Source: Flavobacteriales bacterium (GTDB lineage Bacteria > Bacteroidota > Bacteroidia > CAIKAF01). Taken from it: a stretch of 64,000 nt of DNA. The stretch covers positions 291,574 to 355,573 of the forward strand of contig JANWKT010000014.1 in the NCBI GenBank assembly GCA_025451235.1, in the 5' to 3' direction. The notes beneath the pieces are model-generated. The model made no database searches, was not told where the DNA came from, and saw only the letters and a program-made list of their open reading frames with translations. Position numbers and translations under genes: made by a program. Below, one piece after another: positions 52,876-64,000 of the stretch; the stretch's first letter is position 1, and the number at the start of each line of letters is the position of its first letter.

Positions 52876-53048
52876 AGGATATGATTATTTGTTGGGTATT
52901 GGTTGAACGGATAGTGGGTTGTCCCAATGCCGGATTTAAATGTAGGAATTTTATTTCATTTACAAGTATACGCAGACCCTCACTTATTTGATTTTGTATG
53001 GCCGTTTATCCTAACGACCCGATTGATGGAGACCGATTGGTAAAATGG

Positions 53049-53546
53049 TTAGTGTATATGCCGCATTCCCTTTTTTACCATTATATAGTTAACAGGTAAA
53101 GCAGCCCAAAAACCGGCCAAAAGGGCAACCGCCATTCCTATCCAAAAAATGGGGTCTGTTAAATGAGCCGACATTACGCCTGGTATCATCACCTCTGCAA
53201 GTACCTCAAATGTTTCCATTACCAGGATACTGATGCCTTCACCGATAATCACTGTTTTTAATGCCTTGGCAGGACTGAAACCAAACTTTTTTAGGGGTAA
53301 AATACCTAATAGCAAACCTGCTATAAATCCGAGAATTACAGAAATAGTAATGGAAGTAAGGTTGTTGAATCCGAGTGCAGTTGATATGATCATTCCCAGA
53401 ATCTCACCAATTCCACAACCCATCAGACAATGTAAGGTTGCACTTAAGGCAAGCTTGAAGTTTGAACTGTTTAGCTTATCGTGATGACTATTTGCATTGG
53501 AATCATGATGGACCTGCAAATTGTGTTCATGATGCGATGTTTTCAT
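53049..53546 (-). CDS. DUF4396 membrane protein
   Basis: 165 residues. A His-rich N-terminal tail (HHEHNLQVHHD), then four or five membrane segments with the family's 'HCLMGCGIGEILGMIISTALGF', 'ETFEVLAEVMIPGVMSAHLTDPIFWIGM' and 'LPVNYIMVKKGMRHIH'. A role in metal or small-ion handling is possible given the His-rich ends, but this is inference. Upstream at 53633-53648, TAGGCTT-gt-AAGCCTA is a short palindrome. Confidence 0.85.
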   Translation of the reverse strand: MKTSHHEHNLQVHHDSNANSHHDKLNSSNFKLALSATLHCLMGCGIGEILGMIISTALGFNNLTSITISVILGFIAGLLLGILPLKKFGFSPAKALKTVIIGEGISILVMETFEVLAEVMIPGVMSAHLTDPIFWIGMAVALLAGFWAALPVNYIMVKKGMRHIH

Positions 53547-53701
53547 AAGTAACGATTTAACAGTACAAATGTCTGAACTTACCCGAAATCCGTGTTATAG
53601 AATTTTGTGGAATGAATATATAATTTTGGGATAGGCTTGTAAGCCTACCGGTTATCCGATCTTGAAGTTCGAATCTAGCTTCTGTTAAACTTGATGAATA
53701 A

Positions 53702-53842
53702 CGCTAACGTGTTTGCAGATTTTCGATGGGCGGTATTTTCAGCATACATGTTGATGCGGAGAACTGAACTTTCTATAGCCACAAAACTGTCTGCTGAGCA
53801 CGAAACCCCGCCTATTACAAATGTGCTGTTATGCGCTGTGGC
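53702..53842 (-). repeat. attC-like site H, second family, 3' of the orphan kinase
   Basis: Bounded by CGCTAAC (53702-53708) and GTTATGCGC (53828-53836). Its inner sequence (GGGGTTTCGTGCTC on the minus strand) differs from the other seven sites. The outer arm GTTATGCGCTGTGGC (53828-53842) pairs with GCCACCATTGCGTATAAC at 55102-55119, beyond the kinase, with a small bulge. Short ORFs on both strands here are not credible. Confidence 0.6.
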
Positions 53843-53871
53843 TATTTCAATTTTGTTCGCTAGCCTTTGCA

Positions 53872-55068
53872 TTATGCACTTTCGTCAAACATAATTTCGT
53901 CTGAACTACCTATTTTATATAATGGTTTCTCAATAGGTAATGTAAAATAAAAAGATGAACCCTCACCTTCAATACTTTCTACCCAAATTTCACCGCCATT
54001 TTTTTCTAAAAATCCTTTTACCAATAACAATCCAATTCCAGCTCCTTTATTCTTTTTTCGTGTTTCTGAAAGGGTTTTCATTTGCGGTGTAAAAAGTTTT
54101 TCAATTATTTCTTGCGACATCCCAATTCCAGTGTCTTTAACCTGAATAATAATTTTGTCGTCTTTGGTTTTTGCTGAAAGGGTTATTGTTCCACCTTTTT
54201 CGGTATGCTTTATCGCATTTGAAACGATATTCTGAATGATTGAAATTAACATTTTCCCATCCGCAAATACAGAAGTGTTCTCTTCAATTTCGTGATGAAG
54301 ATTTATTGTATTTATTGAAGCAGTTTCGTTTAATGCTTCGAAGACTTTATCAATGTATTCGGTTAGCTTTATTTTTGTTGGGGAAAATGCGTCCGAAGCG
54401 TATTTTATTCTCGCCCATTCGACTAAATAGTCTAACATGTCTAATTCATCCGTTGATGATTTATAGAGTAAGTCAAGCATTTCCTGAACAGCATCAGGCT
54501 TCATTTTATGGAAATTTTCTTTCAAATATTTTGCGGTTCCTATAATAGAGGACAGGGGACTTCGTAAATCATGTGAAAGTATGGCAAGAACACTCTCTTT
54601 ATGTGTATTAAGTTCTTCCAATTCTCTGACATATTTTTTTATAGCATCCTCGGATTGTTTCCTATCTGTTAAATCACGTAAAATTTTAACATATCCCAAC
54701 ATCTCTCCGTCTAAACCGATAAGTGGGAAAACCAAGCCATAAGCGTAAAACAGGTTCTTGTCTTTAGCGATGTGCCACCTATTGTCTGTTGCTCTGCCTT
54801 CTTTTAAAGCTGTTTCAATTTCTCTTTTCGGAATACCGTCTTTTAAATCATCCTCTGTAAATATTAAGTCGAAAGGCTCTCCAATAACCTCCTCCGTTTC
54901 GTAACCAAATATTTTTGTCGAGCCAGAACTCCAACTATTTATGATGAATTCTTTGTCTAACGTAAAAATCGAATAGTCCTGTAAGCTGTCGATTATTTGG
55001 CTATAAAATTCAGCAGTTGGTATATATTTATTTTTAAGAATTTTTGGTTTGTCTTGTTTGTCATCCAT
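53872..55068 (-). CDS. Orphan PAS sensor histidine kinase (cassette 1)
   Basis: 398 residues from MDDKQDKPKILK. No membrane segment. PAS domain at about 25-140 ('SQIIDSLQDYSIFTLDKEFIINSWSSGSTKIFGYETEEVIGEPFDLIF'), then a HisKA with 'LAILSHDLRSPLSSIIG', and HATPase with 'IVSNAIKHTEKGG', 'VKDTGIGMSQ' and 'GAGIGLLLVKGFLEKNGG'. No regulator gene is adjacent. The frame runs to 55137 but crosses the next recombination-site arm, so the later ATG is chosen. Its two flanks carry matching inverted ends, making it a self-contained unit. Confidence 0.9.
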   Translation of the reverse strand: MDDKQDKPKILKNKYIPTAEFYSQIIDSLQDYSIFTLDKEFIINSWSSGSTKIFGYETEEVIGEPFDLIFTEDDLKDGIPKREIETALKEGRATDNRWHIAKDKNLFYAYGLVFPLIGLDGEMLGYVKILRDLTDRKQSEDAIKKYVRELEELNTHKESVLAILSHDLRSPLSSIIGTAKYLKENFHKMKPDAVQEMLDLLYKSSTDELDMLDYLVEWARIKYASDAFSPTKIKLTEYIDKVFEALNETASINTINLHHEIEENTSVFADGKMLISIIQNIVSNAIKHTEKGGTITLSAKTKDDKIIIQVKDTGIGMSQEIIEKLFTPQMKTLSETRKKNKGAGIGLLLVKGFLEKNGGEIWVESIEGEGSSFYFTLPIEKPLYKIGSSDEIMFDESA

Positions 55069-55112
55069 TGTTTTTGTTTTAATGTTTATGTTGAAGCGTC
55101 TGCCACCATTGC

Positions 55113-55306
55113 GTATAACCCAACCGCAATTGGCCACGCCAGGCCGCCTAAGTGCGCTACGCTGTAGCCTTGCTTAAAGATAATAAACTTTAACCAATCT
55201 CAAATGATAGCGGGGCGTAAATTTTTATAATAGGCCTAAGCGGTTTATGTTCTAAAAACTTTGAACATTACGGAATGCAAGGCATGTGGCCAATTGGGAG
55301 TTAGCC
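55113..55306 (-). repeat. attC-like site A
   Basis: Cores GTATAAC (55113-55119) and GTTAGCC (55300-55306). Perfect inner arms CAATTGGCCAC (55127-55137) and GTGGCCAATTG (55286-55296). Central stem near GGCGTA/TAGGCC with one mismatch, then TAAGCGG. The two outer cores do not match each other, as expected if they belong to different cassettes. Confidence 0.7.
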
Positions 55307-55316
55307 ACCGTTTTCT

Positions 55317-55943
55317 TCATTTTTGAATCCAAGGGATTTCAAAGAATAAAGGATACTCATCGGATATTGTGTCTGGTTGACAAATAGAAACCGAATCTCT
55401 TCCTGAACATTTTACCAAACACTTATAATTATATGTTTCCTGAGGAATTTGAATAAGCTTTTGCATCAATCCATTTTGTATAAAATGAGAAATATTTTTG
55501 AATAGATAAGTTCTAAAGCTCCAACTTAAACTAAAGCGATGGTAGTAGTACAATGAGTCAGATACTTTCAATAAACAAGAGAATCTTAGGATTTGATTGT
55601 CCCAATAGCTAAATTCTAAAATATTGTCCTTAAAGTATAATGTTGAATCAACTTGAATAGGATAACCAGGACTAATTACTTTAAATTTGTTCACTTTTAT
55701 CCATATTGAGTCCTGTTTTATAATCGTAAAAGTCCTTCTGTATTCTTTTCTTTTTAAATTAACTTTTATTCTATCATTATTAATTTTAATTGAGTACGAT
55801 TGGTTGTTTACGTCCATGCAATGTTCTGAATTACTTTGTATGGATTTATTAATATCAAAAATATCAAACTGACATTTTGTTTGAGCATACAAGTTATTGT
55901 AAAACATTAAAAAGGATGTAAAAAGAATTTTCTTTAAGTTCAT
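55317..55943 (-). CDS. Exported protein of unknown function (cassette 2)
   Basis: 208 residues; signal peptide MNLKKILFTSFLMFYNNLYAQ. Beta-rich, with 'NRIKVNLKRKEYRRTFTIIKQDSIWIKVNKF' and a C-terminal cysteine trio. It ends 8 bases from site A. No family recognised. It is A+T-rich with many ATA/TTA codons compared with the chromosomal genes before 53 kb. Confidence 0.7.
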   Translation of the reverse strand: MNLKKILFTSFLMFYNNLYAQTKCQFDIFDINKSIQSNSEHCMDVNNQSYSIKINNDRIKVNLKRKEYRRTFTIIKQDSIWIKVNKFKVISPGYPIQVDSTLYFKDNILEFSYWDNQILRFSCLLKVSDSLYYYHRFSLSWSFRTYLFKNISHFIQNGLMQKLIQIPQETYNYKCLVKCSGRDSVSICQPDTISDEYPLFFEIPWIQK

Positions 55944-56030
55944 TCAGTATAAAGTACAATTATGATAAAACGAAAAACTTACTTAAATCGGTATATTTAA
56001 ATTGACTCATATATTTTCTTTAGGAATGGT

Positions 56031-56199
56031 AGCTAACGGATATACAACTTGGCAAGTTGCCATTTTATAAATGTAATAATTTTAATCCATACTAAAAAGA
56101 GAGCATTGCGTATATTATTTTAATGCGCCTAAGCGGATTGTGTTTTAAAAACGTTGCACTGTGCGGTATGCAGGCAATTTACTAAGTTGTAAGTTAGCC
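56031..56199 (-). repeat. attC-like site B
   Basis: Cores AGCTAAC (56031-56037) and GTTAGCC (56193-56199). Arms beginning ACAACTTGGCAAGTTGCC and ending GGCAATTTACTAAGTTGT pair at 15 of 18 positions. Central stem GCGTAT/ATGCGC, then CTAAGCGG. Nearly identical to site E (roughly nine bases in ten). Confidence 0.75.
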
Positions 56200-56264
56200 T
56201 GAGCCGCCTAAAAAACTTAAATCTGTTAGCCGAAGACGAAATGAGTCAACCAAATGGAGGTTAC

Positions 56265-57278
56265 TTATTTTTTTATAAATTTAAATGATGAAATAAATTC
56301 GCCCTTGGAAGCAATCAAATAATAAACTCCTGTCGGATAATCAGTCAGGTCAATTGAGGTTATTACGGAACTAAAACTATTCTTATAAACAGTCTGGCCT
56401 AAGTTACTTACAATACAAAAACTATAACCAATCATTTTGTCTGGAGTAGTAATCAATATTTCTTTATCACTTGGATTCGGCTGAATAATTATGTGTATTT
56501 CGTTTGATAGATTTTCTGTCACCATATTTATAAGGCAAGGACTGTCCGCTGGATTGTAAAAGGTAGTGTCTCTTTGGCAATTTCCGTTTGCATTCACTCT
56601 GCCGTGAAGCGTTGTATAAGTTCCGAAACATTCAAGTTGTGGAGCTTCTTGTGCAAGAATTCCTGGCCCATAAACACTCAACGGTTGAGCTGCACCAGTT
56701 GTTTGAAACCCGAAACCTGTCGTAAAACCTACACCTTCAATCAATGCGAGGTCGTTACTGATGCTGTCTCCACCTGCACATGGCTGAAATCTTGAGAAAA
56801 AGAATATTTGATGATTCATCCCATCTCCAAGTAATGTTGTATCAATTCTGGTAACATATAGAACGGAGTCGTCCGTGAATAATGTCTTTGGATAAACTGT
56901 TCCAAGAGTCAAATTGAAATCATACAATAAAGTGTCAACCGAGTTTACAAAATCAAATGCGTAAACTTTTTTTTGCGGAATATCCTGTCTGATACAAGAG
57001 GTCAAAACATGTAAATATTGATTAACATTCCCGGTGCACCATAAGTTCCCGGTCGACTCATTCACATATAACTTATGATAGGTGAAACTATTTATTAATG
57101 TGTCACCGGAAATGTAAAATTGTCTTTGGCCGAATGGAATACATGGAGCATCATAAATTGTGTACATATCATTCCAAGCATAATTACTGTCTGGAAAGGG
57201 AATATAAGCCTGTGCATTCAGTTTAATTCCGCCAGAGAAGAAAATACATATCACAGCCAAAATAAAGTCCTTGTGCAT
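56265..57278 (-). CDS. T9SS type A exported protein (cassette 3)
   Basis: 337 residues from MHKDFILAVICIFFSGGIKLNAQ (signal peptide). The body has no recognised domain; it contains seven or so cysteines ('APCIPFGQRQF', 'SRFQPCAGGD', 'NGNCQRDTTFYNPADSPCLIN') likely to form disulfides. The last 80 residues ('IIQPNPSDKEILIT' to 'SSFKFIKK') are a T9SS type A sorting domain. The frame extends to 57311, but the signal peptide fixes this start. Confidence 0.85.
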   Translation of the reverse strand: MHKDFILAVICIFFSGGIKLNAQAYIPFPDSNYAWNDMYTIYDAPCIPFGQRQFYISGDTLINSFTYHKLYVNESTGNLWCTGNVNQYLHVLTSCIRQDIPQKKVYAFDFVNSVDTLLYDFNLTLGTVYPKTLFTDDSVLYVTRIDTTLLGDGMNHQIFFFSRFQPCAGGDSISNDLALIEGVGFTTGFGFQTTGAAQPLSVYGPGILAQEAPQLECFGTYTTLHGRVNANGNCQRDTTFYNPADSPCLINMVTENLSNEIHIIIQPNPSDKEILITTPDKMIGYSFCIVSNLGQTVYKNSFSSVITSIDLTDYPTGVYYLIASKGEFISSFKFIKK

Positions 57279-57333
57279 TTTTATTCTTCCATCATGTTTA
57301 AAACTCATCATCTTAAAAATTCAAGGCGGCTAG

Positions 57334-57526
57334 GGCTAACGAAGCACTATTAAAAACGCTAGACCACCTTGGTCCGTTACGCTGGTGCCAGTTATAAATG
57401 TATAAACTTTAATCCAAACCGCAATGACTAGCGGCCGTAAATTTTATCAATACGGCCAGGCGGGTGAGGTTTTAAAAGCGTTGATATATAATGGATGCAG
57501 GCAATTTTATAAAATTGGAGTTAGGT
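57334..57526 (-). repeat. attC-like site C
   Basis: Cores GGCTAAC (57334-57340) and GTTAGGT (57520-57526). Right arm contains the palindrome CAATTTTATAAAATTG; the left arm has diverged. Central stem GGCCGTA/TACGGCC is perfect over seven pairs. Outer flanks: the right one pairs with site D's left end across the thioredoxin gene (14 of 15). Confidence 0.7.
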
Positions 57527-57585
57527 AATGGCACATTAAAATCTTCAATTTCATCCTAAATTGTCTTGATAACAAGGAGACTAAA

Positions 57586-58368
57586 TTAATTTCTCAGTGC
57601 TTCATCAATTTCCTGTTTTAGGTCAGCAATGGTCTTGGTTTCGAGTTTTCCGGTATAATAGTATTTTATTTTTGAATCTTTGCCAATAACAACATGTGTC
57701 GGGAAGGCCTGCACTTTATAACTTATACTTAGGGCTTGACTTTCTGGAATGATTGTATAATCAAATGGTTTCTTTTTCAAAAAGGGAATGAGTTTTTCTT
57801 TTTTATCATTGGCAAATCCCAAGAATACAATTTCCTTTCCCTTATACGATTCAACCAGTTTGTTAAGTTCAGGCATTTCAGCAACACAAGGTCCACAGGC
57901 GATGAACCAGAAATTCATTACAATTACTTTTCCCATCTGGTTTTCCAATGAATATTCACTTTCCTGAATGTCCTTCACCGAAAATGGAATGGCGTTTTGT
58001 CCAGTTAAATCAATTTTTATATTCTTGTTTTTTTCTTGGTCAGCCCTTATTTTTTTTAACTCCTCTGTCATAGGTTGGAAGAGCCATATTATTTGGCCTT
58101 CTTTGTTCCGATACGCGTCGACAGTGTAATCACCCGACTGATTCATTTTTATAATTTCAAGTGGGGAAGGTCGCATTCCATCCTCGGTATAAACAAGTGT
58201 TTTTTTTGAACTTATCTCAATACCTTCAAGTTCATAAGAATCAACCTTCGTTAAACCATTCAAGAACTCCATATTTTTGATGGGGAATTGATTCTCGGCT
58301 TTTTTGTCGGGCTTAGAGCCGCAGCCTATAATCAAAACAAGAGAAATAATTAATCCTATTTTTTTCAT
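57586..58368 (-). CDS. TlpA-like thioredoxin-fold lipoprotein (cassette 4)
   Basis: 260 residues. Lipobox 'LIIGC' with lipid Cys16. Residues 20-115 are unassigned; residues 120-255 form a TlpA/AhpC-TSA-type domain with 'MNFWFIACGPCVAEMPEL' (Cys158-x-x-Cys161) and 'QAFPTHVVIGKDSKI' with the cis-Pro. An extracytoplasmic thiol reductase is likely. A near-consensus box CACGTTTG lies about 20 bases upstream. Confidence 0.88.
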   Translation of the reverse strand: MKKIGLIISLVLIIGCGSKPDKKAENQFPIKNMEFLNGLTKVDSYELEGIEISSKKTLVYTEDGMRPSPLEIIKMNQSGDYTVDAYRNKEGQIIWLFQPMTEELKKIRADQEKNKNIKIDLTGQNAIPFSVKDIQESEYSLENQMGKVIVMNFWFIACGPCVAEMPELNKLVESYKGKEIVFLGFANDKKEKLIPFLKKKPFDYTIIPESQALSISYKVQAFPTHVVIGKDSKIKYYYTGKLETKTIADLKQEIDEALRN

Positions 58369-58413
58369 TTACATGAATATTCAATTCAAACGTGAATTGT
58401 CAAAAGTGCTATT

Positions 58414-58585
58414 ACCTAACGAACCTAAATTTTATAAAGTTGCCGGACTTTAAAGTTACAAAACTTAAATCATATTCAAAAATGAAAGCAGTGCGTATAT
58501 TTTTTACAATACGCACAGGCGGATTAACAACTGAAAGCATTGATTTTAGAAGATTTTAGGCAATTTTAAAAAATGGGAGTTAGGT
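58414..58585 (-). repeat. attC-like site D
   Basis: Cores ACCTAAC (58414-58420) and GTTAGGT (58579-58585). Arms AAATTTTATAAAGTTGCC and GGCAATTTTAAAAAATGG pair at about 14 of 18. Central stem GTGCGTA/TACGCAC, perfect over seven pairs, then AGGCGG. Confidence 0.75.
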
Positions 58586-58630
58586 GTTGGCCCTCTTTTC
58601 AGTCAGCTCCCAGGTTTATACTATAATCAT

Positions 58631-59083
58631 CTACAATACCCTCTTTCCCCAAATCAAATGTCTGGTATTAGATTTTTTGCACGCAGTTTTAAGAGCCGGA
58701 CTGCATTTATAATAATAATTATAATGCTGTAGCACTCCTGACCGCAGTACATAGAACTGATCAGCAATGATGCCATTGCGGTAGCAGATCAAATAAAAAT
58801 CAATGCAGGGTTCCCCAGCAAACTTAATGTTCTTTTTAGTGGAAGTAAGTAGTAAACCTGAGATTTTTTTCAATCCATTTGTAGTTACGAAAACTTCCGG
58901 TTCTTTGGAGGTGTGATAATCAAGATGTCCATAACAGACATTTTCCTGGTTTACAAAATTTTGGATATATCCATAGGCGTGTATTTGGACACTATCATAA
59001 TTAAAATTCAGAGAGTCCTTGTAAAATTGTGCCATGCAGTTATTCAAGATCAGTATAAATCCAGTTAATAATATATATTTCAT
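58631..59083 (-). CDS. Small exported protein, unknown function (cassette 5)
   Basis: 150 residues from MKYILLTGFILILNNCMAQ (signal peptide, possibly a lipobox at 'NNC'). Several cysteines ('EPCIDFYLICYRNG', 'YKCSPALKTACKK'). The C-terminus is basic. No family recognised. The frame extends to 59107 but the later ATG begins a better signal. Confidence 0.7.
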   Translation of the reverse strand: MKYILLTGFILILNNCMAQFYKDSLNFNYDSVQIHAYGYIQNFVNQENVCYGHLDYHTSKEPEVFVTTNGLKKISGLLLTSTKKNIKFAGEPCIDFYLICYRNGIIADQFYVLRSGVLQHYNYYYKCSPALKTACKKSNTRHLIWGKRVL

Positions 59084-59169
59084 TGTTGGGATATGTTGGG
59101 TTTTCAAAAAAAGTAAAGTATGGTTTTTTTTTCTTTACAAGATTCAATCATGAAAATGTTTTTGGTTAC

Positions 59170-59337
59170 GCCTAACGGATATACAACTTGGCAAGTTGCC
59201 GTTTATAAATGTAATAATTTTAATCCATACTAAAAAGAAAGCAAGGCGTAAATTATTTTAATACGCCTAAGCGGATTTTGTTTTAAAACCGTTGCCCCGT
59301 GAGGCATGTAGGCAATTTGCTAAGTTGTAAGTTAGCA
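59170..59337 (-). repeat. attC-like site E
   Basis: Cores GCCTAAC (59170-59176) and GTTAGCA (59331-59337). Arms ACAACTTGGCAAGTTGCC and GGCAATTTGCTAAGTTGT. Central stem GGCGTA/TACGCC at 59245-59250 and 59262-59267, in the exact middle of the site. Confidence 0.78.
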
Positions 59338-59375
59338 ACTGGCTAGGAAATATTTCAAAATTTACAAGAACTTAA

Positions 59376-60941
59376 TTATTCAGCAACAATCTTTCCTGTT
59401 TTAATTGTTTCAGAATTTTCAGTCAATGTGTAGAAATACATTCCTGAGCTTAAATTATTTCTGTCAACTTGGATAGAATTTGAATTGATATTAGGAATTG
59501 CCCGAACTTGTTTACCCGTCATATCAAACAAAGTCAATGTTGCATCATTTAGCAACTGTTCAGTCTGAATGATGAAATTTGTCGTAAAAGGATTTGGATA
59601 AACTAAAGTTGAGTATTCATTTAATTCTTCAATGCCAATTTGATTCGAATACTTTAATGTCAAAAAACTCCAAGAGTTTAAATCAATTGATGTTCCAGAG
59701 AGAAATATGTTTCCTTGATTGTCAAGGGCCATTGAATTACAGTAATCTCTGCTAAAAGTTGCATGATGATATCTAGCAAAAGCTTGCTCATTTCCCAATG
59801 GGTCATATTTAATTAGTACATAATTTTCTTTATTGTTTGCATCTGAACTATATCCAGCTACGTTAATGTATCCATCCTCACCAATAATTACGGCACAGCC
59901 GATATCTCCAGCACAGTAGCCTAGAGAATATTGTTTCTGCCAAATCAGATTTCCGATAGAATCAATTTTTACAGTCTTGATTGAATCATCACAATTATTA
60001 TACAATGTGCTCACTACATAGACATTTCCACTCGGATCAACATCTATTCCGTTATTGCCGTATTCATTGGCTGCAGCATTGGCTATATAATATTCCCATT
60101 TGAAATTACCGGAACTGTCATACTTAACTACTGTAGCTCCACCTTGTCCTCCTCCCAAAATAACTGATTGACAAAGAACATAAATATTAGCCATAGAATC
60201 AATCTTTATATCACGGCCATATGCAACACCGGGGTCAAATGTTCCGAAATAATGTTGCTCCCATTGTTTCGAGCCATTTTGGTCATATTTAAAAGTATGG
60301 CAATATTGGGTGGTATCTCCACCACCTGTTCCCGTTACATATACATTTTCATCATTGTCTAATCCAATGGATCCTCGACCCACTCCATTAAGGCAGCTAT
60401 CTATGGCATTCCATAAGAGATTTCCATTCGAATCATATTTCAAGGTAACTATCTTGTGTAGATTTGATCCTGTTACATAAACATTGTTTGAGTCATCTGT
60501 GATAACATCCCATCCCCAGTTCCAATATAAGGCTGTTCCGAATAATCTTTTCCATTGGAGAACTCCGTCAGAATCATATTTCAAAAGTGCTAAACTGTCA
60601 CCATTGTAAATCGTCATTCCTGTTACATAAATATTGCTTGAATTGTCAATAGCCATTCTTGTAAACCAATTCAATGAGTCATGCGTTGTAACCCATTCTA
60701 ATCCACCACCACCATTGTACTTAATTGTCATGGAGCCAACATTTGCCCATGAAGTATCAAAAAATCTACCGGTTACATAAACATTTCCTAAATCGTCTGT
60801 TACCATGTCCATTTGCTCGTAACTCATTGGATAATTTCCAACATAAGTTGTCGCCCATTGGGGTGATACTTGTCCGAAAAGTGTCGTAAAACCAAATGAT
60901 AGAAAGAATAATGTCAGTAATTTGAATTGGGTTCTAAACAT
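59376..60941 (-). CDS. T9SS type A SBBP beta-propeller protein (cassette 6)
   Basis: 521 residues; signal peptide to about 'TTLFGQ'. About nine SBBP-type repeats with 'DDLGNVYVTGR', 'DSSNVYVTGS'-type strands, then a type A sorting tail from about residue 440 ('TLVYPNPFTTNFIIQTEQ' to 'TIKTGKIVAE'). Similar in build to the first gene of this window, but carried in a cassette. A -7 box sits upstream. Confidence 0.9.
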   Translation of the reverse strand: MFRTQFKLLTLFFLSFGFTTLFGQVSPQWATTYVGNYPMSYEQMDMVTDDLGNVYVTGRFFDTSWANVGSMTIKYNGGGGLEWVTTHDSLNWFTRMAIDNSSNIYVTGMTIYNGDSLALLKYDSDGVLQWKRLFGTALYWNWGWDVITDDSNNVYVTGSNLHKIVTLKYDSNGNLLWNAIDSCLNGVGRGSIGLDNDENVYVTGTGGGDTTQYCHTFKYDQNGSKQWEQHYFGTFDPGVAYGRDIKIDSMANIYVLCQSVILGGGQGGATVVKYDSSGNFKWEYYIANAAANEYGNNGIDVDPSGNVYVVSTLYNNCDDSIKTVKIDSIGNLIWQKQYSLGYCAGDIGCAVIIGEDGYINVAGYSSDANNKENYVLIKYDPLGNEQAFARYHHATFSRDYCNSMALDNQGNIFLSGTSIDLNSWSFLTLKYSNQIGIEELNEYSTLVYPNPFTTNFIIQTEQLLNDATLTLFDMTGKQVRAIPNINSNSIQVDRNNLSSGMYFYTLTENSETIKTGKIVAE

Positions 60942-60960
60942 GATCTGTCGTTCTATAAAT

Positions 60961-60968
60961 CAAAGGTA
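60961..60968 (-). promoter_or_regulatory. -7 box (TACCTTTG) inside cassette 6
   Basis: Exact TAnnTTTG on the minus strand, 19 bases before the ATG at 60941. It suggests that this cassette carries its own promoter. Confidence 0.5.
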
Positions 60969-61027
60969 AGTGAATGAATGGGAAAATAAATGACAATTCT
61001 ATCTGTTAGTCGTATAATTGAGCTTGC

Positions 61028-61195
61028 AGCTAACGAAGAATTATTTACCACGTTACCGGCTTATAAATATCGGAACTTTAATTCAAACTACAACGATAGC
61101 GGGGCGTAAATTTTAAAAATACGCCCAGGCGGGTTAGTAGCAGTGTACTTTAAATAGACCGTACTGCAGGTAATGTGGAAAATATACAGTTAGCT
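61028..61195 (-). repeat. attC-like site F
   Basis: Cores AGCTAAC (61028-61034) and GTTAGCT (61189-61195). Arms around TTTACCACGTTACC and GGTAATGTGGAAAAT pair well. Central stem GGGCGTA/TACGCCC, perfect over seven pairs. Its outer right flank GTTAGCTACTTCTGCCT matches the far end of the ars cassette at 63742-63758. Confidence 0.77.
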
Positions 61196-61265
61196 ACTTC
61201 TGCCTCCCCACCGATATCTGTCAAACGGAGTCGAGAATGGTCAACCGAGCGGGAAATAATTTGTT

Positions 61266-61991
61266 TTAATTATTACTGTCCTTCTTCTTAAAATCGAAAT
61301 GTGTCACCCAAGTCAGTTGCAAATAAAACTGATTTAACCATTCCTGTTGTGTCCCGCGAACCCAACCTACATAAAGTAGTCCCGTTTCAAGGCTACTCCA
61401 TTTGTTGAGTTTAAAACCAATTTGGGCGGCCGACCAATTCTCATTGAATATAGAAGTTGCATTTGGTGTTGTATTAAAAAATGCTTCACTGTATCCAAAT
61501 ATGTACATCCGATCTTTATTGAATGGAATCTTAAATCCTAATAAATATCGTAAACGATGGTTGAAATTATATTGACCTGTCGCCCGATCTTCAATAAAGC
61601 GTTCATCGAAACGTAAACGGTTTTTGATTTCAAATTTTCCTACAGGGATTTTTAATGTGAGTTGCTGAAATAAACGATGCTCATTCCGGTAGAATGAATC
61701 AAATGGGTTTTGTCTTTCATATACATAAGAAGCTGTTCCTGTAAGATGCTTCGTAATGTTATATGATATTCCAGCTTCGGCATACATGTACATCATTCGT
61801 GCCGGGTCTGTGACATTGTTCACCGTACTAACATAAGGCTTAGTAGCAGCAAACAAATAAACATTGTAAGAAAACTTCTTGCTTAAATCGGCACTGTGGT
61901 CAATAGTTGGGAATAAGCCAAAATAACTTACTGTTTGTGCTGTTAGATTGCTGACTATAAAAAATGAGATAAGGAATAGATGTTTTTTCAT
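61266..61991 (-). CDS. DUF2490 outer-membrane beta-barrel-like protein (ars cassette)
   Basis: 241 residues; signal peptide MKKHLFLISFFIVSNLTAQ. The pattern of alternating hydrophobic/polar strands ('HRLFQQLTLKIPVGKFEIKNRLRFDERFIE', 'NHRLRYLLGFKIPFNKDRMYIFGYSEAFFN', 'FYLQLTWVTHFDFKK') is that of DUF2490 proteins, which are small outer-membrane barrels. Last gene of the ars cassette, 16 bases after arsC. A role in arsenic handling is suggested only by position. Confidence 0.8.
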   Translation of the reverse strand: MKKHLFLISFFIVSNLTAQTVSYFGLFPTIDHSADLSKKFSYNVYLFAATKPYVSTVNNVTDPARMMYMYAEAGISYNITKHLTGTASYVYERQNPFDSFYRNEHRLFQQLTLKIPVGKFEIKNRLRFDERFIEDRATGQYNFNHRLRYLLGFKIPFNKDRMYIFGYSEAFFNTTPNATSIFNENWSAAQIGFKLNKWSSLETGLLYVGWVRGTQQEWLNQFYLQLTWVTHFDFKKKDSNN

Positions 61992-62007
61992 AGAGAAATG
62001 AATCTTT

Positions 62008-62430
62008 TTATTTAAGATTATCCTTTATGAATTCTTCGCTATATGTCTTTATCAATTCTCTAACTCTTCGGAATTCAGCAGTTATTTCTTCCGGTGTTCC
62101 AGTTGCTTTTGCCGGGTCGGGGAAATTGTAATGAAACTTTTGTGCTTTTGTTGGGAAATAGGGACAGCGTTCTTTCGCATTGTCGCAAACCGTTATTACA
62201 AAATCAAAGTCGATATCGAAATATTCATCGATGTTGTTGGAGGTATGAGATGAAATATCAATTCCATCTTCTTTCATGGTTTCGATGGCCTTTGGATTTA
62301 CTCCGTGGGTTTCAACCCCGGCACTATAAACAATGGCTCTATCACCTGCGAAATGACGTAAATATCCTTCTGCTATCTGGCTACGGCAACTATTGCCCGT
62401 ACATAAAACTAAAATCTTTGTTGGCTCCAT
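62008..62430 (-). CDS. arsC: Arsenate reductase, thioredoxin-coupled type
   Basis: 140 residues. Low-molecular-weight phosphatase fold: P-loop Cys10-TGNSC15-Arg16 ('VLCTGNSCRSQIAEGYL') and the redox pair Cys82 and Cys89 in 'VCDNAKERCPYFP'; the numbering matches the staphylococcal pI258 enzyme. Reduces arsenate to arsenite using thioredoxin. ATG 62430 lies two bases after the upstream stop; an in-frame ATG at 62442 would overlap that gene. Confidence 0.94.
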   Translation of the reverse strand: MEPTKILVLCTGNSCRSQIAEGYLRHFAGDRAIVYSAGVETHGVNPKAIETMKEDGIDISSHTSNNIDEYFDIDFDFVITVCDNAKERCPYFPTKAQKFHYNFPDPAKATGTPEEITAEFRRVRELIKTYSEEFIKDNLK

Positions 62431-62432
62431 AC

Positions 62433-62903
62433 TTAACAACATTTACCTCCCGGTTCGCATTTGGTTTGAGGTGCATTTAGTTCTGATAGACTTACCTTTA
62501 GTTTTTCTTGCGGAATTCCACATTTATCGGATGCCAAACAATTGGTGGTTTTTGCTACCAACAAAAAGTTAAAGCCGTTAAACTCTAAATCGTATTTTCC
62601 GATTGTTGCTCCCTGATATTCGACTTCTATTTCCCGATCTTCTATTCCTAAAACTTTTTCGGAAAGGTTGATGATCTTCAACAATTTTTCAGGTTTTAAA
62701 CGGTGGTCAGTATCATTTGCATCCCATAACTGGAAGTTGACTACTTTTTCATTACGGACAGTTCCGCCACAATCGATAAAGTGTTTGGTAATTTCACCCA
62801 CTTCTGTTACATGGAAGTGTACGGGCACCATTGAATTATCCGGTAATTGAAAATTTACATCGGTTAATGTTGGCAACAGTTCTTTAATTTCTGATAGTTT
62901 CAT
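62433..62903 (-). CDS. DUF6428 protein
   Basis: 156 residues. 'IKELLPTLTDVNFQLPDNSMVPVHFHVTEVG', 'KHFIDCGGTVRNEKVVNFQLWDANDTDHRLKPEKLL' match the DUF6428 family regularly found between arsR and arsC in Bacteroidota. Six cysteines; the C-terminus is 'CEPGGKCC', able to bind arsenite or another thiophilic metal. Its own ArsR-type operator lies 18 bases upstream. Confidence 0.88.
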   Translation of the reverse strand: MKLSEIKELLPTLTDVNFQLPDNSMVPVHFHVTEVGEITKHFIDCGGTVRNEKVVNFQLWDANDTDHRLKPEKLLKIINLSEKVLGIEDREIEVEYQGATIGKYDLEFNGFNFLLVAKTTNCLASDKCGIPQEKLKVSLSELNAPQTKCEPGGKCC

Positions 62904-62920
62904 ATTCGTTTATTTATATT

Positions 62921-62936
62921 ATCGTAATATTTCGAT
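62921..62936 (-). promoter_or_regulatory. ArsR-type operator upstream of DUF6428 gene
   Basis: ATCGTAATATTTCGAT: palindrome ATCGnAATATTnCGAT, the same motif as upstream of the first arsR gene. It suggests a second regulated promoter between the regulators and DUF6428-arsC-DUF2490. Confidence 0.65.
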
Positions 62937-62953
62937 TGAATTAAGCAAAATTT

Positions 62954-63283
62954 TTAACAGCAGTCAGCCGCTTTTATCGGAAGGTCAAATATCTCATTGA
63001 GATATTTTTTAGCGTTGTTCCATTCCTTTTCATCAATACAGTAACAAACTTTGGCTCCTTCAATATCTCCTTTAATTAGTCCAGCCTCTTTGAGTTCTTT
63101 TAAATGTTGTGATACGGTACTCTGTGATAAGGGAAGTTCATCTACAATGTCTCCGCAAACACAAGCTTGTTTTTGAATGAGCAACTTTAATATTGCGACA
63201 CGAGCAGGATGCGCCAAAGCTTTCGCATACTTAGCGATCTTGTTATCCTTTACGGAGAATTCTTCTGTTTTAGCTAATCCCAT
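62954..63283 (-). CDS. ArsR/SmtB family metalloregulator 1
   Basis: 109 residues. Winged-helix ArsR ('[63 protein letters not shown]'). Possible arsenite ligands are the cysteines in 'ACVCGD', 'VCYC' and the C-terminal 'ADCC'. Its start overlaps the end of the other regulator gene by 14 bases. Confidence 0.92.
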
Positions 63284-63602
63284 CTCTGCTACATGTTATG
63301 TTTTCGTGCTGCTTTGCTTTATTATAAAGTCCGTCTACTAATTTTTTAAACTCTTCCAGTTTATCAATGTTGATGCAATAACAAGCTTTGCTTCGTGCTA
63401 TGCGTCCTTTTATCAAACCTTCTTTTTTAAGGGCCTTAATATGTTGTTCGGTTATACTCGAGCTAAGTCCAATATCTTTTAAGTCCTCTGTAACGCAGGA
63501 TTTAGTTTCAATGACCTTTTGAATAATGGTTACTCTTGAGATATTACCCAATGAACGACACAATGATGCCAGCCTGTTATTTTTGTCTTCTTCTATATCC
63601 AT
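63270..63602 (-). CDS. ArsR/SmtB family metalloregulator 2
   Basis: 110 residues. Winged-helix ArsR-like protein ('[62 protein letters not shown]') clearly related to the next gene, but with the 'CVC' pair replaced by 'SCVT'. It keeps 'ACYC'. A tandem duplicate that may have changed metal selectivity or act as a heterodimer partner. First gene of the operon. Confidence 0.88.
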
Positions 63603-63614
63603 AAAAGAAATATA

Positions 63615-63650
63615 ATCGCAATATTACGATAATTATTTCATTATTGCAAA
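63615..63650 (-). promoter_or_regulatory. ars operon promoter with ArsR-type operator
   Basis: On the minus strand: TTTG (63647-63650), 20 bases, TAATATTG (63619-63626, one mismatch from TAnnTTTG). The palindrome ATCGCAATATTACGAT (63615-63630) overlaps the -7 box, so a bound ArsR would block RNA polymerase. Leader of about 12 bases to the ATG at 63602. Confidence 0.75.
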
Positions 63651-63751
63651 TTTCAGACGAAAACGGTCAACTGATTGAGCATTAACTAAAAATATTTTCT
63701 ATAAACTCTTTTTGATGGAAATACTGTCAAAACGGAATTTTAGGCAGTTGT

Positions 63752-63911
63752 AGCTAACGAAGCACTATTTGCCAAGTGCCGTTTTATAAATATACAACTT
63801 TAATATTATCCGTAAAGACTAGCAAGCCGTAAATTATTTACATACGGCCAAGCGGGTGAGAAGCAGTAAGCTTAAATAATCTGTAATGAAAGGCAATTTG
63901 GCAAATTAGGT
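63752..63911 (-). repeat. attC-like site G
   Basis: Left core AGCTAAC (63752-63758); the right core is degenerate (ATTAGGT, 63905-63911). Arms ATTTGCCAAGTGCC and GGCAATTTGGCAAAT pair well. Central stem GCCGTA/TACGGC, six pairs, then CAAGCGG. Its outer left flank completes the ars cassette. The unit it would belong to lies beyond the window. Confidence 0.7.
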
Positions 63912-63957
63912 ACTATCTTCAAAACCAAACTAATTTACAGGTTTTTATCTTTTTTTT

Positions 63958-63965
63958 TATCTTTG
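63958..63965 (+). promoter_or_regulatory. Possible -7 box (TATCTTTG) reading out of the window
   Basis: Exact TAnnTTTG match after a T-rich tract, on the plus strand, pointing rightward away from the array. It could serve a gene beyond the window end. No -33 box can be fixed in the T-rich run. Confidence 0.35.
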
Positions 63966-64000
63966 TCCTTACCGAGAGGAAGCATACTGTGATCACTCAC

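What the first reader, a model, noticed from the sequence alone, without database searches (positions are those of the whole stretch)
53702..63911. Integron-like cassette array in a Bacteroidota chromosome
Seven minus-strand units (six single genes and one five-gene operon) are separated by eight 140-194 bp sites bounded by YTAAC/GTTAR cores. The gene content is unrelated from unit to unit, orientation is uniform, and sites have the R''-arm-stem-arm-R' layout of attC. Classical attC sites are about 57-141 bp, so seven of these would be unusually long. If confirmed, it is a cassette system of a little-described kind, able to move T9SS cargo, a sensor kinase and an ars operon.
Basis: partly seen in the sequence, partly recalled or inferred. 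Interest (0 to 1): 0.95.

Follow-up and report, generated by a model that had tools for sequence, protein, structure and literature searches.

The report
Scattered integron-like cassette arrays, integrase missing
This draft bacterial genome (likely Flavobacteriales) carries seven gene units in a row here and similar recombination-type sites at nine other places, and the units tested have matching ends as in bacterial integrons, which likely lets the cell collect and exchange secreted-protein, arsenic-related and phage-defence genes, although no integron enzyme was found in the assembly.

Summary
The decisive test: in an integron the two ends of one cassette must pair, because they join in the excised circle. 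Over 15 cassettes 122 of 180 tested positions match within a cassette, against 68.7 (sd 6.8) with shuffled partners, 0 of 20000 as good; for six window cassettes the true pairing is the best of 720. A model of seven window sites finds 25 sites at 10 places in the genome; a second model finds sites in 3 of 395 genomes of the class: this one, a congener and one of the same family. Of 16 first sites examined, 7 lead to a shared attI-like head; a model of it finds five more heads, and two contigs stop exactly at a head's GTTAG core. No integron integrase reaches the cut-off in these three assemblies. Cargo includes a retron, AbiV and an ars-like operon. Best reading: a dispersed integron-type system with long attC-like sites (about 160-220 bp), its recombinase unbinned, lost or of another kind. 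Movement is inferred, not observed.

The parts
63753..63918 (-). attC-like site g (first visible site; left core degenerate CCTAAT; right core GTTAGCT)
   Evidence: Model R1 144.2 bits; C14 and C13 contig ends share 127 nt reaching into this site
61034..63757 (-). Cassette 1: DUF2490 protein, ArsC-like, DUF6428, two ArsR-type regulators, with its site f
   Evidence: Families; ends match at 10 of 12 positions after GTTA
61029..61195 (-). attC-like site f
   Evidence: R1 162.3 bits
59176..61033 (-). Cassette 2: SBBP beta-propeller protein with T9SS sorting tail, with its site e
   Evidence: SBBP and Por_Secre_tail; ends 6 of 12
59171..59337 (-). attC-like site e
   Evidence: R1 171.1 bits
58420..59175 (-). 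Cassette 3: small protein of no known family (signal-like start by eye), with its site d
   Evidence: No family; ends 5 of 12, the one window pair that fits the neighbour better (8 of 12)
58415..58585 (-). attC-like site d
   Evidence: R1 148.1 bits
57340..58419 (-). Cassette 4: TlpA/ResA-like thioredoxin-family protein, with its site c
   Evidence: AhpC-TSA/Redoxin; ends 10 of 12
57335..57526 (-). attC-like site c (long, with inserted block in right arm; arms pair poorly)
   Evidence: R1 131.2 bits
56037..57339 (-). Cassette 5: T9SS-tailed protein, with its site b
   Evidence: TIGR04183 32.7 bits over cut-off 23; ends 10 of 12
56032..56199 (-). attC-like site b
   Evidence: R1 166.6 bits
55119..56036 (-). 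Cassette 6: 208-aa protein of no known family (signal-like start by eye), with its site a
   Evidence: No family; ends 7 of 12
55114..55306 (-). attC-like site a (long; right core taken as GTTATAC)
   Evidence: R1 136.3 bits
53708..55118 (-). Cassette 7: PAS-HisKA-HATPase sensor kinase, with its site s1
   Evidence: Families; ends 7 of 12
53702..53834 (-). attC-like site s1, about 133 bp, other sequence family; last site of the array
   Evidence: Left core GCATAAC, right core GTTAGCG; arms partly complementary; not found by R1 or R2
63919..64000 (-). 3' end of unassembled gene X (ends ...LPLGKDKDKKKDKNL) and short spacer, upstream of site g, cut by contig end
   Evidence: Full-length copy of the last 101 nt only at C14 end and C13 start in the assembly

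Best explanation
The window holds an array of seven gene cassettes with attC-like sites, one of ten places with such sites in this genome, and the cassettes were likely placed there by an integron-type tyrosine recombinase that is predicted to act in trans and is missing from the assembly. Shown: units begin at a GTTA core and end in a 133-193 bp site; the two ends of one unit match, as an excised circle with an intact attC requires; in most of 29 sites the two arms pair; seven of 16 first sites examined lead to a shared 65-nt head that looks like an attI. Inferred: the folded single strand is cut at G|TT of the right core; a circle is inserted at a head or at another attC; the enzyme is IntI-like. 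Untested: excision, integration, expression from the head, present activity, and the identity of the enzyme.
For: 1) Cassette ends: same-cassette match 122 of 180 positions against 68.7 (sd 6.8) on shuffling, 0 of 20000; left-core flank against the same site's own right side 54 of 180. Without the three pairs whose core I set by eye: 98 of 144 against 58.3 (sd 6.2), 0 of 100000; six window cassettes: true pairing is the single best of 720. 2) Arms: mean duplex energy of left and right arm -11.9 against -6.96 (sd 0.51) for arms swapped among 29 sites, 0 of 5000. 3) 25 matches in the own genome at 10 places, 7 of them the training sites. 4) Heads: of 16 sites examined, 7 have as top-scoring predicted start a place behind a common motif ending TA|GTTAG; a model of these seven finds five further heads, 3 in G000 and 2 in G001; one of them (C25) is followed 737 nt on by a matching left core with a known left arm. 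5) Contigs C5 of G000 and C184 of G001 stop exactly after GTTAG of a head, as expected if different cassettes follow it in the reads. 6) Orthologous place in two species (G000 C26, G001 C174), unrelated cassettes.
Against: No IntI: best own hit to TIGR02249 79.8 bits against cut-off 265, none over the cut-off in 16 genomes of the family. Full core consensus in only 2 of 8 window sites for either side. The interiors are strongly conserved and seven of eight window sites are longer than published attCs. Single extrahelical bases were not seen; instead a recurrent 1x1 mismatch in the L arm and a longer right spacer. 6 of 29 sites have poorly pairing or hybrid arms. Of the 16 sites, 8 gave no convincing start; 6 of these have under 1.6 kb of contig upstream, but C36 and G4.52 do not. 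Head starts were accepted partly on the shared motif: C26.c scored 17 and was accepted, C36 scored 19 (four ties) and was not. No excised circle or strain pair with a clean gain or loss was available; the window's flank is rearranged in G001 and was not informative.
Confidence: 0.86

Rival explanations
1. The sites are a MITE-like or REP-like repeat of about 170 bp that inserts beside genes; the units are just the genes between copies.
For: Sequence is conserved over the whole site, ends CTAAC/GTTAG are inverted repeats, many copies.
Against: An inserted repeat predicts related flanks around one site; these match no better than shuffled (54 of 180 against 68.7), whereas the two ends of the unit between two sites match (122 of 180). 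Uniform orientation and common heads are unexplained.
Confidence: 0.05
2. Immobile, decaying cluster of attC sites lacking an integrase (CALIN): cassettes were inserted by an IntI now lost. Not exclusive of the best explanation, which leaves present activity open.
For: No IntI over cut-off in three assemblies; decayed sites; hybrid arms. CALINs are known (PMC9024848, PMC8618304, passages).
Against: Arms still pair well in most sites, unrelated cassettes at an orthologous place in two species, contigs breaking exactly at head cores. Conserved heads at many places are not part of the CALIN definition seen.
Confidence: 0.3
3. The recombinase is encoded next to the arrays, by gene X upstream of site g, a repeat that assembly and binning lost (a sub-case of the best explanation).
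For: C14 and C13 begin with the same 127 nt, holding the 3' end of a gene that reads into a site without a proper left core.
Against: Only about 21 codons are visible and no family can be assigned; no recombinase was seen by eye next to the other heads.
Confidence: 0.2
4. XerC/XerD or another housekeeping recombinase moves the units without any IntI.
For: G004, with 5 sites, has only two Phage_integrase matches, 303 and 307 aa frames of Xer size (sequences not inspected); Xer-like proteins in G000 (label by eye).
Against: Known Xer sites are about 28-bp dif-like, not folded 170-nt sites (recalled); 13 other family genomes have no site, yet Xer enzymes are near universal (recalled).
Confidence: 0.07

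Closest known systems
Integron gene cassettes with attC sites (sedentary chromosomal integrons)
   Same: Gene plus downstream palindromic site, GTTA-type cores, uniform orientation, unrelated cargo, similar sites within one lineage, cassette ends complementary
   Different: Seven of eight window sites are 166-193 bp (published 57-141 bp, PMC3053210), full core consensus in 2 of 8, conserved inner hairpin, no integrase found, many places in one genome instead of one platform
[quoted passage not shown]
   Same: Two or more attC-like sites with no integrase nearby; definition from PMC9024848 (passages)
   Different: A conserved attI-like head occurs at 9 places in G000, and sites lie at 10 places in one genome
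attG insertion (cassettes inserted at secondary chromosomal sites)
   Same: Cassettes at many chromosomal places without an adjacent integrase gene
   Different: The heads resemble one another over about 65 nt; attG sites are less constrained (recalled); attG papers were seen in a search listing only
Complete integrons in Bacteroidota
   Same: IntI occurs in the class: G153, 421.9 bits; [quoted passage not shown]
   Different: No attC-like repeat family stood out in 20 kb around the G153 intI; one search lists matches in G000, G001 and G004 only

Membership tests
Integron cassette array | Two ends of each cassette complementary (attC complete only in the circle) | tested here: met
   15 cassettes, 122 of 180 against 68.7 shuffled, 0 of 20000; one window pair fits its neighbour better
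Integron cassette array | Cores RYYYAAC ... GTTRRRY | tested here: inconclusive
   GTTA right core in 8 of 8 window sites, but full GTTRRRY in 2 of 8 (d, e) and full RYYYAAC in 2 of 8 (c, d); most others deviate at one letter
Integron cassette array | Imperfect palindrome: paired R and L arms with unpaired spacer | tested here: met
   29 sites, 0 of 5000 arm swaps as good; 6 of 29 pair poorly; spacer longer on the right side
Integron cassette array | Extrahelical bases on one side of the folded bottom strand | tested here: inconclusive
   Recurrent 1x1 mismatch and asymmetric spacer, no clear single-base bulges
Integron cassette array | attC size 57-141 bp | tested here: not met
   s1 about 133 bp fits; the other seven are 166-193 bp
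Complete integron | intI gene (TIGR02249 over cut-off) | tested here: not met
   Best 79.8 bits against 265; 0 of 16 in the family. The array runs off the contig, so this is absence from the assembly
Complete integron | attI at array start | tested here: inconclusive
   A conserved 65-nt head precedes 7 of 16 sites examined; this window's array start is not in the contig
CALIN | At least two attC sites with no integrase nearby | tested here: met
   Eight attC-like sites in the window; the only Phage_integrase match in contig C14 lies at 46 kb, about 300 kb away
Integron cassette array | Recombination at G|TT observed | not testable with these tools
   No reads, no sister strain; only contig ends at GTTAG

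The most novel reading that the evidence does not exclude
A distributed integron: one recombinase acting in trans, not adjacent and possibly not IntI, serves at least nine attI-like heads spread over one genome, each opening its own run of cassettes with long attC sites, so that the genome has many exchange points instead of one platform, and uses them to swap defence, secretion and metal genes.
Probability: 0.35. Interest if true: 0.92.

Novelty: new variant of a known kind. Interest (0 to 1): 0.8.

Why it matters
Integrons are known as single platforms with one integrase (recalled) and have rarely been reported in Bacteroidota: IntegronFinder 2.0 tells of In0 elements before and one complete integron in Bacteroidetes proper (PMC9024848, passages), though the phylum is listed among integron carriers (PMC8618304, passages). 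Here one lineage has sites at many places with conserved starts and no integrase in view. If the system is live, it is a new way to organise cassette exchange, it would extend the size and sequence range of attC sites, and its cargo (a type III-A retron, AbiV, an FRG-domain protein, T9SS proteins) would make it a defence and surface-protein exchange system. The cassette-end test used here needs no sequence model of attC and could find such arrays where site models tuned to known attCs might miss them.

Tried and rejected
Rfam: 0 matches in 53000-64000 at E up to 1. A 352-aa recombinase homologue (L004; L108 in G001) was considered as the enzyme; its C-terminal half lacks the usual His/Arg box and Tyr in both species, by eye. 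The homologues in G008, G012 and G014 score highest to TIGR02249 in the family but below the cut-off (best 123 bits) and show no IntI-type insert, by eye and recall; these genomes have no site. An outer stem beyond the 7-bp core first looked like a novelty; in a class 1 control one cassette (the same in two plasmids) also matches 5 letters beyond it, so I dropped the claim. That control is weak: its rule demanded the 7-letter match and recovered 1 of the 2 cassettes in each plasmid region. Searching the window's left flank in G001 gave a rearranged region, no empty site. Left out of counts: the pairs starting at C13.a and C34.a (degenerate sites, or a further weak site between); one of 30 sites (L073, broken right core). 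Cores of C14.a (right), C13.c and G1.157a (left) were set by eye; one search repeats the test without those three pairs. In one search, 18 sites were listed and 16 examined. One literature query held a malformed term.
Full report
What was checked. The window is the end of contig C14 of a 4.28-Mb, 46-contig draft genome (G000), 98.09% complete. Public records of two relatives, matched by contig number and length or by length, are titled Flavobacteriales bacterium CRAIB_MAG97 (JANWKQ01; G001, same genus) and, with a title that does not fit, Competibacteraceae BA4 (JACSSC01; G004, same family). The eighth, s1, is a different, shorter site.

Cassette ends. In an integron the attC of a cassette is complete only in the excised circle: the right core is split between the end of the cassette and its beginning. 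So the flank of the left core of a site must match the start of the same cassette, which lies after the previous site, and need not match the sequence after its own right core. I tested 15 adjacent site pairs: 13 in G000 (seven in the window), one in G001, one in G004. Positions 5-16 match 122 of 180 within a cassette; shuffled partners give 68.7 (sd 6.79), maximum 107 in 20000; the site's own right side gives 54. Positions 1-9 and 12-13 match in 12 to 15 of 15, positions 10-11 in only 5 and 2, a recurrent two-base mismatch. Without three pairs whose core I set by eye, 98 of 144 against 58.3 (sd 6.18), 0 of 100000; for the six window cassettes apart from the last, the true pairing is the best of 720. 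One window pair (e to d) fits its neighbour better (5 against 8 of 12). A class 1 control was weak: 1 of 2 cassettes in each of two plasmid regions was recovered, the same cassette, by a rule that demanded the 7-letter core match; it matches 5 letters beyond.

The sites. R1 finds 25 matches at E up to 0.01 in the own genome, 24 of them at 5e-10 or better, on seven contigs and at ten places; seven are the training sites. A second model R2 from 30 sites gives 45 matches at E up to 0.1 in 19 sources, among them decayed ones. Arms come in matched sequence types; left and right arm of one site pair at -11.9 kcal/mol on average against -6.96 (sd 0.51) for swapped arms, 0 of 5000 (29 sites). Six of 29 pair poorly: hybrids of two arm types, sites with an inserted block, or a broken right side. 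Between core and L arm the right spacer is longer, and a 1x1 mismatch recurs in the L arm. The centre is a conserved hairpin, about CCGCTTGGGCGTAT...AATTTACGCCCTGCT. GTTA stands in 8 of 8 right cores in the window, the full GTTRRRY in 2 and the full RYYYAAC in 2.

Distribution. R1 rings in 3 of 60 genomes, own included (25, 5 and 5 matches in G000, G001, G004). R2 rings in the same 3 of 395 genomes drawn from the class, under stricter filters. The core pattern has no match in viral contigs, and one site has none in plasmids.

Array heads. For 16 sites I looked upstream for the predicted start of the cassette. In seven the top-scoring place follows a shared motif, roughly AGGTACNGNAATNNGTA|GTTAG behind an imperfect inverted repeat; an eighth (G4.25b) led to the preceding site; eight gave nothing convincing. 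Scores overlap: C26.c was accepted at 17, C36 not at 19 with four ties, so the shared motif carried part of the decision. A 65-nt model of the seven heads (R3) finds nine heads in G000 at E up to 0.007 (three new: C12, C5, C25) besides one weak antisense match (E 0.35), three in G001 (two new), and nothing below E 0.09 in the other 14 genomes of the family. The new head C25 is followed by a 737-nt unit whose end matches its start and by a truncated site of a known arm type, a prediction that came true; the new heads C12 and G001 C105 gave no convincing unit end in the sequence at hand. Contigs C5 (G000) and C184 (G001) end exactly after GTTAG of a head. The C5 head differs from the similar C12 head close to the core, so that pair cannot cause the break; unbinned copies cannot be excluded, but branching of the reads at the core is the simplest cause (inference).

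Species comparison. G000 C26 and G001 C174 share orthologous genes upstream (4 kb at 73% identity and more beyond) and both carry sites near the same gene, with different head types and no protein match between the cassettes. G000 has one extra gene before its head, so the break is not exactly at the core.

Enzyme. TIGR02249 gives at best 79.8 bits in G000 (cut-off 265), none over cut-off in 16 family genomes, one of 395 in the class, G153 with 421.9 bits, which shows that the search works. G001 has two Phage_integrase matches, a 296-aa frame and the degenerate 352-aa protein; G004 has two, 303 and 307 aa, not inspected. The enzyme may be in unbinned sequence: C14 and C13 share their first 127 nt, the 3' end of a gene X and the start of a site; no other full-length copy of the last 101 nt is in the assembly.

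Cargo. Window: ars-like operon, two T9SS-tailed proteins, a thioredoxin-family protein, a PAS sensor kinase, two small proteins of no family. Elsewhere: a type III-A retron (PRTase and RT, PADLOC 292.1 and 440.9 bits) as first cassette of the array at C13 130-136 kb, AbiV with DUF5677, an FRG protein of candidate defence family PDC-S15. Of 30 such proteins given to Pfam, more than half had no family. One cassette (C8, between sites c and b) has its two called genes on the opposite strand.

Comparison with the literature. attC sites are described as palindromes between RYYYAAC and GTTRRRY of 57 to 141 bp (PMC3053210, passages). [quoted passage not shown] CALINs have been proposed to arise by off-target insertion by an IntI elsewhere, by loss of intI or by rearrangement (PMC8618304, passages). 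In PMC8352920 the word bacteroid does not occur (passages). The listings of searches showed no report of such arrays in Flavobacteriales; the library is open-access only.

Verdict. The observation and the cassette reading hold. A complete integron was not found. The novelty lies in many places per genome with conserved attI-like starts, long attC-like sites, and no integrase in view. Movement itself is inferred.

Noticed in passing
L065 13894-16528 (G000:C13, about 133.9-136.5 kb): A type III-A retron (PRTase, small protein, reverse transcriptase) is the first cassette of an array; the RT reading frame runs about 40 nt into the site.
   Followed up: partly
L065 9943-13885 and L068 6676-8670: Other cassettes hold AbiV with DUF5677, and an FRG protein of candidate defence family PDC-S15.
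   Followed up: partly
L062 10499-12015: A cassette whose two called genes lie on the strand opposite to its site, one of them a weak DUF218 match.
   Followed up: no
window 63874-64000 and L064 1-127: Two contigs share their first 127 nt (perhaps the assembler's k-mer), holding the end of an unassembled gene X.
   Followed up: partly
L074, L075, L076 (G004 contigs C38, C32, C25): G004 contigs share 69-nt ends next to large genes each followed by a small gene and a site; looks like repeated polymorphic-toxin cores with variable tips and immunity genes, by eye only.
   Followed up: no
L004 1438-2496 and L108 952-2010: A conserved 352-aa tyrosine-recombinase homologue lacks the usual His/Arg box and Tyr in both species of the genus, by eye.
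   Followed up: no
L003 540-1550 and 1453-2397 (G000:C40): Two overlapping tyrosine recombinase genes in tandem, on a contig where no site was found.
   Followed up: no
   Followed up: no
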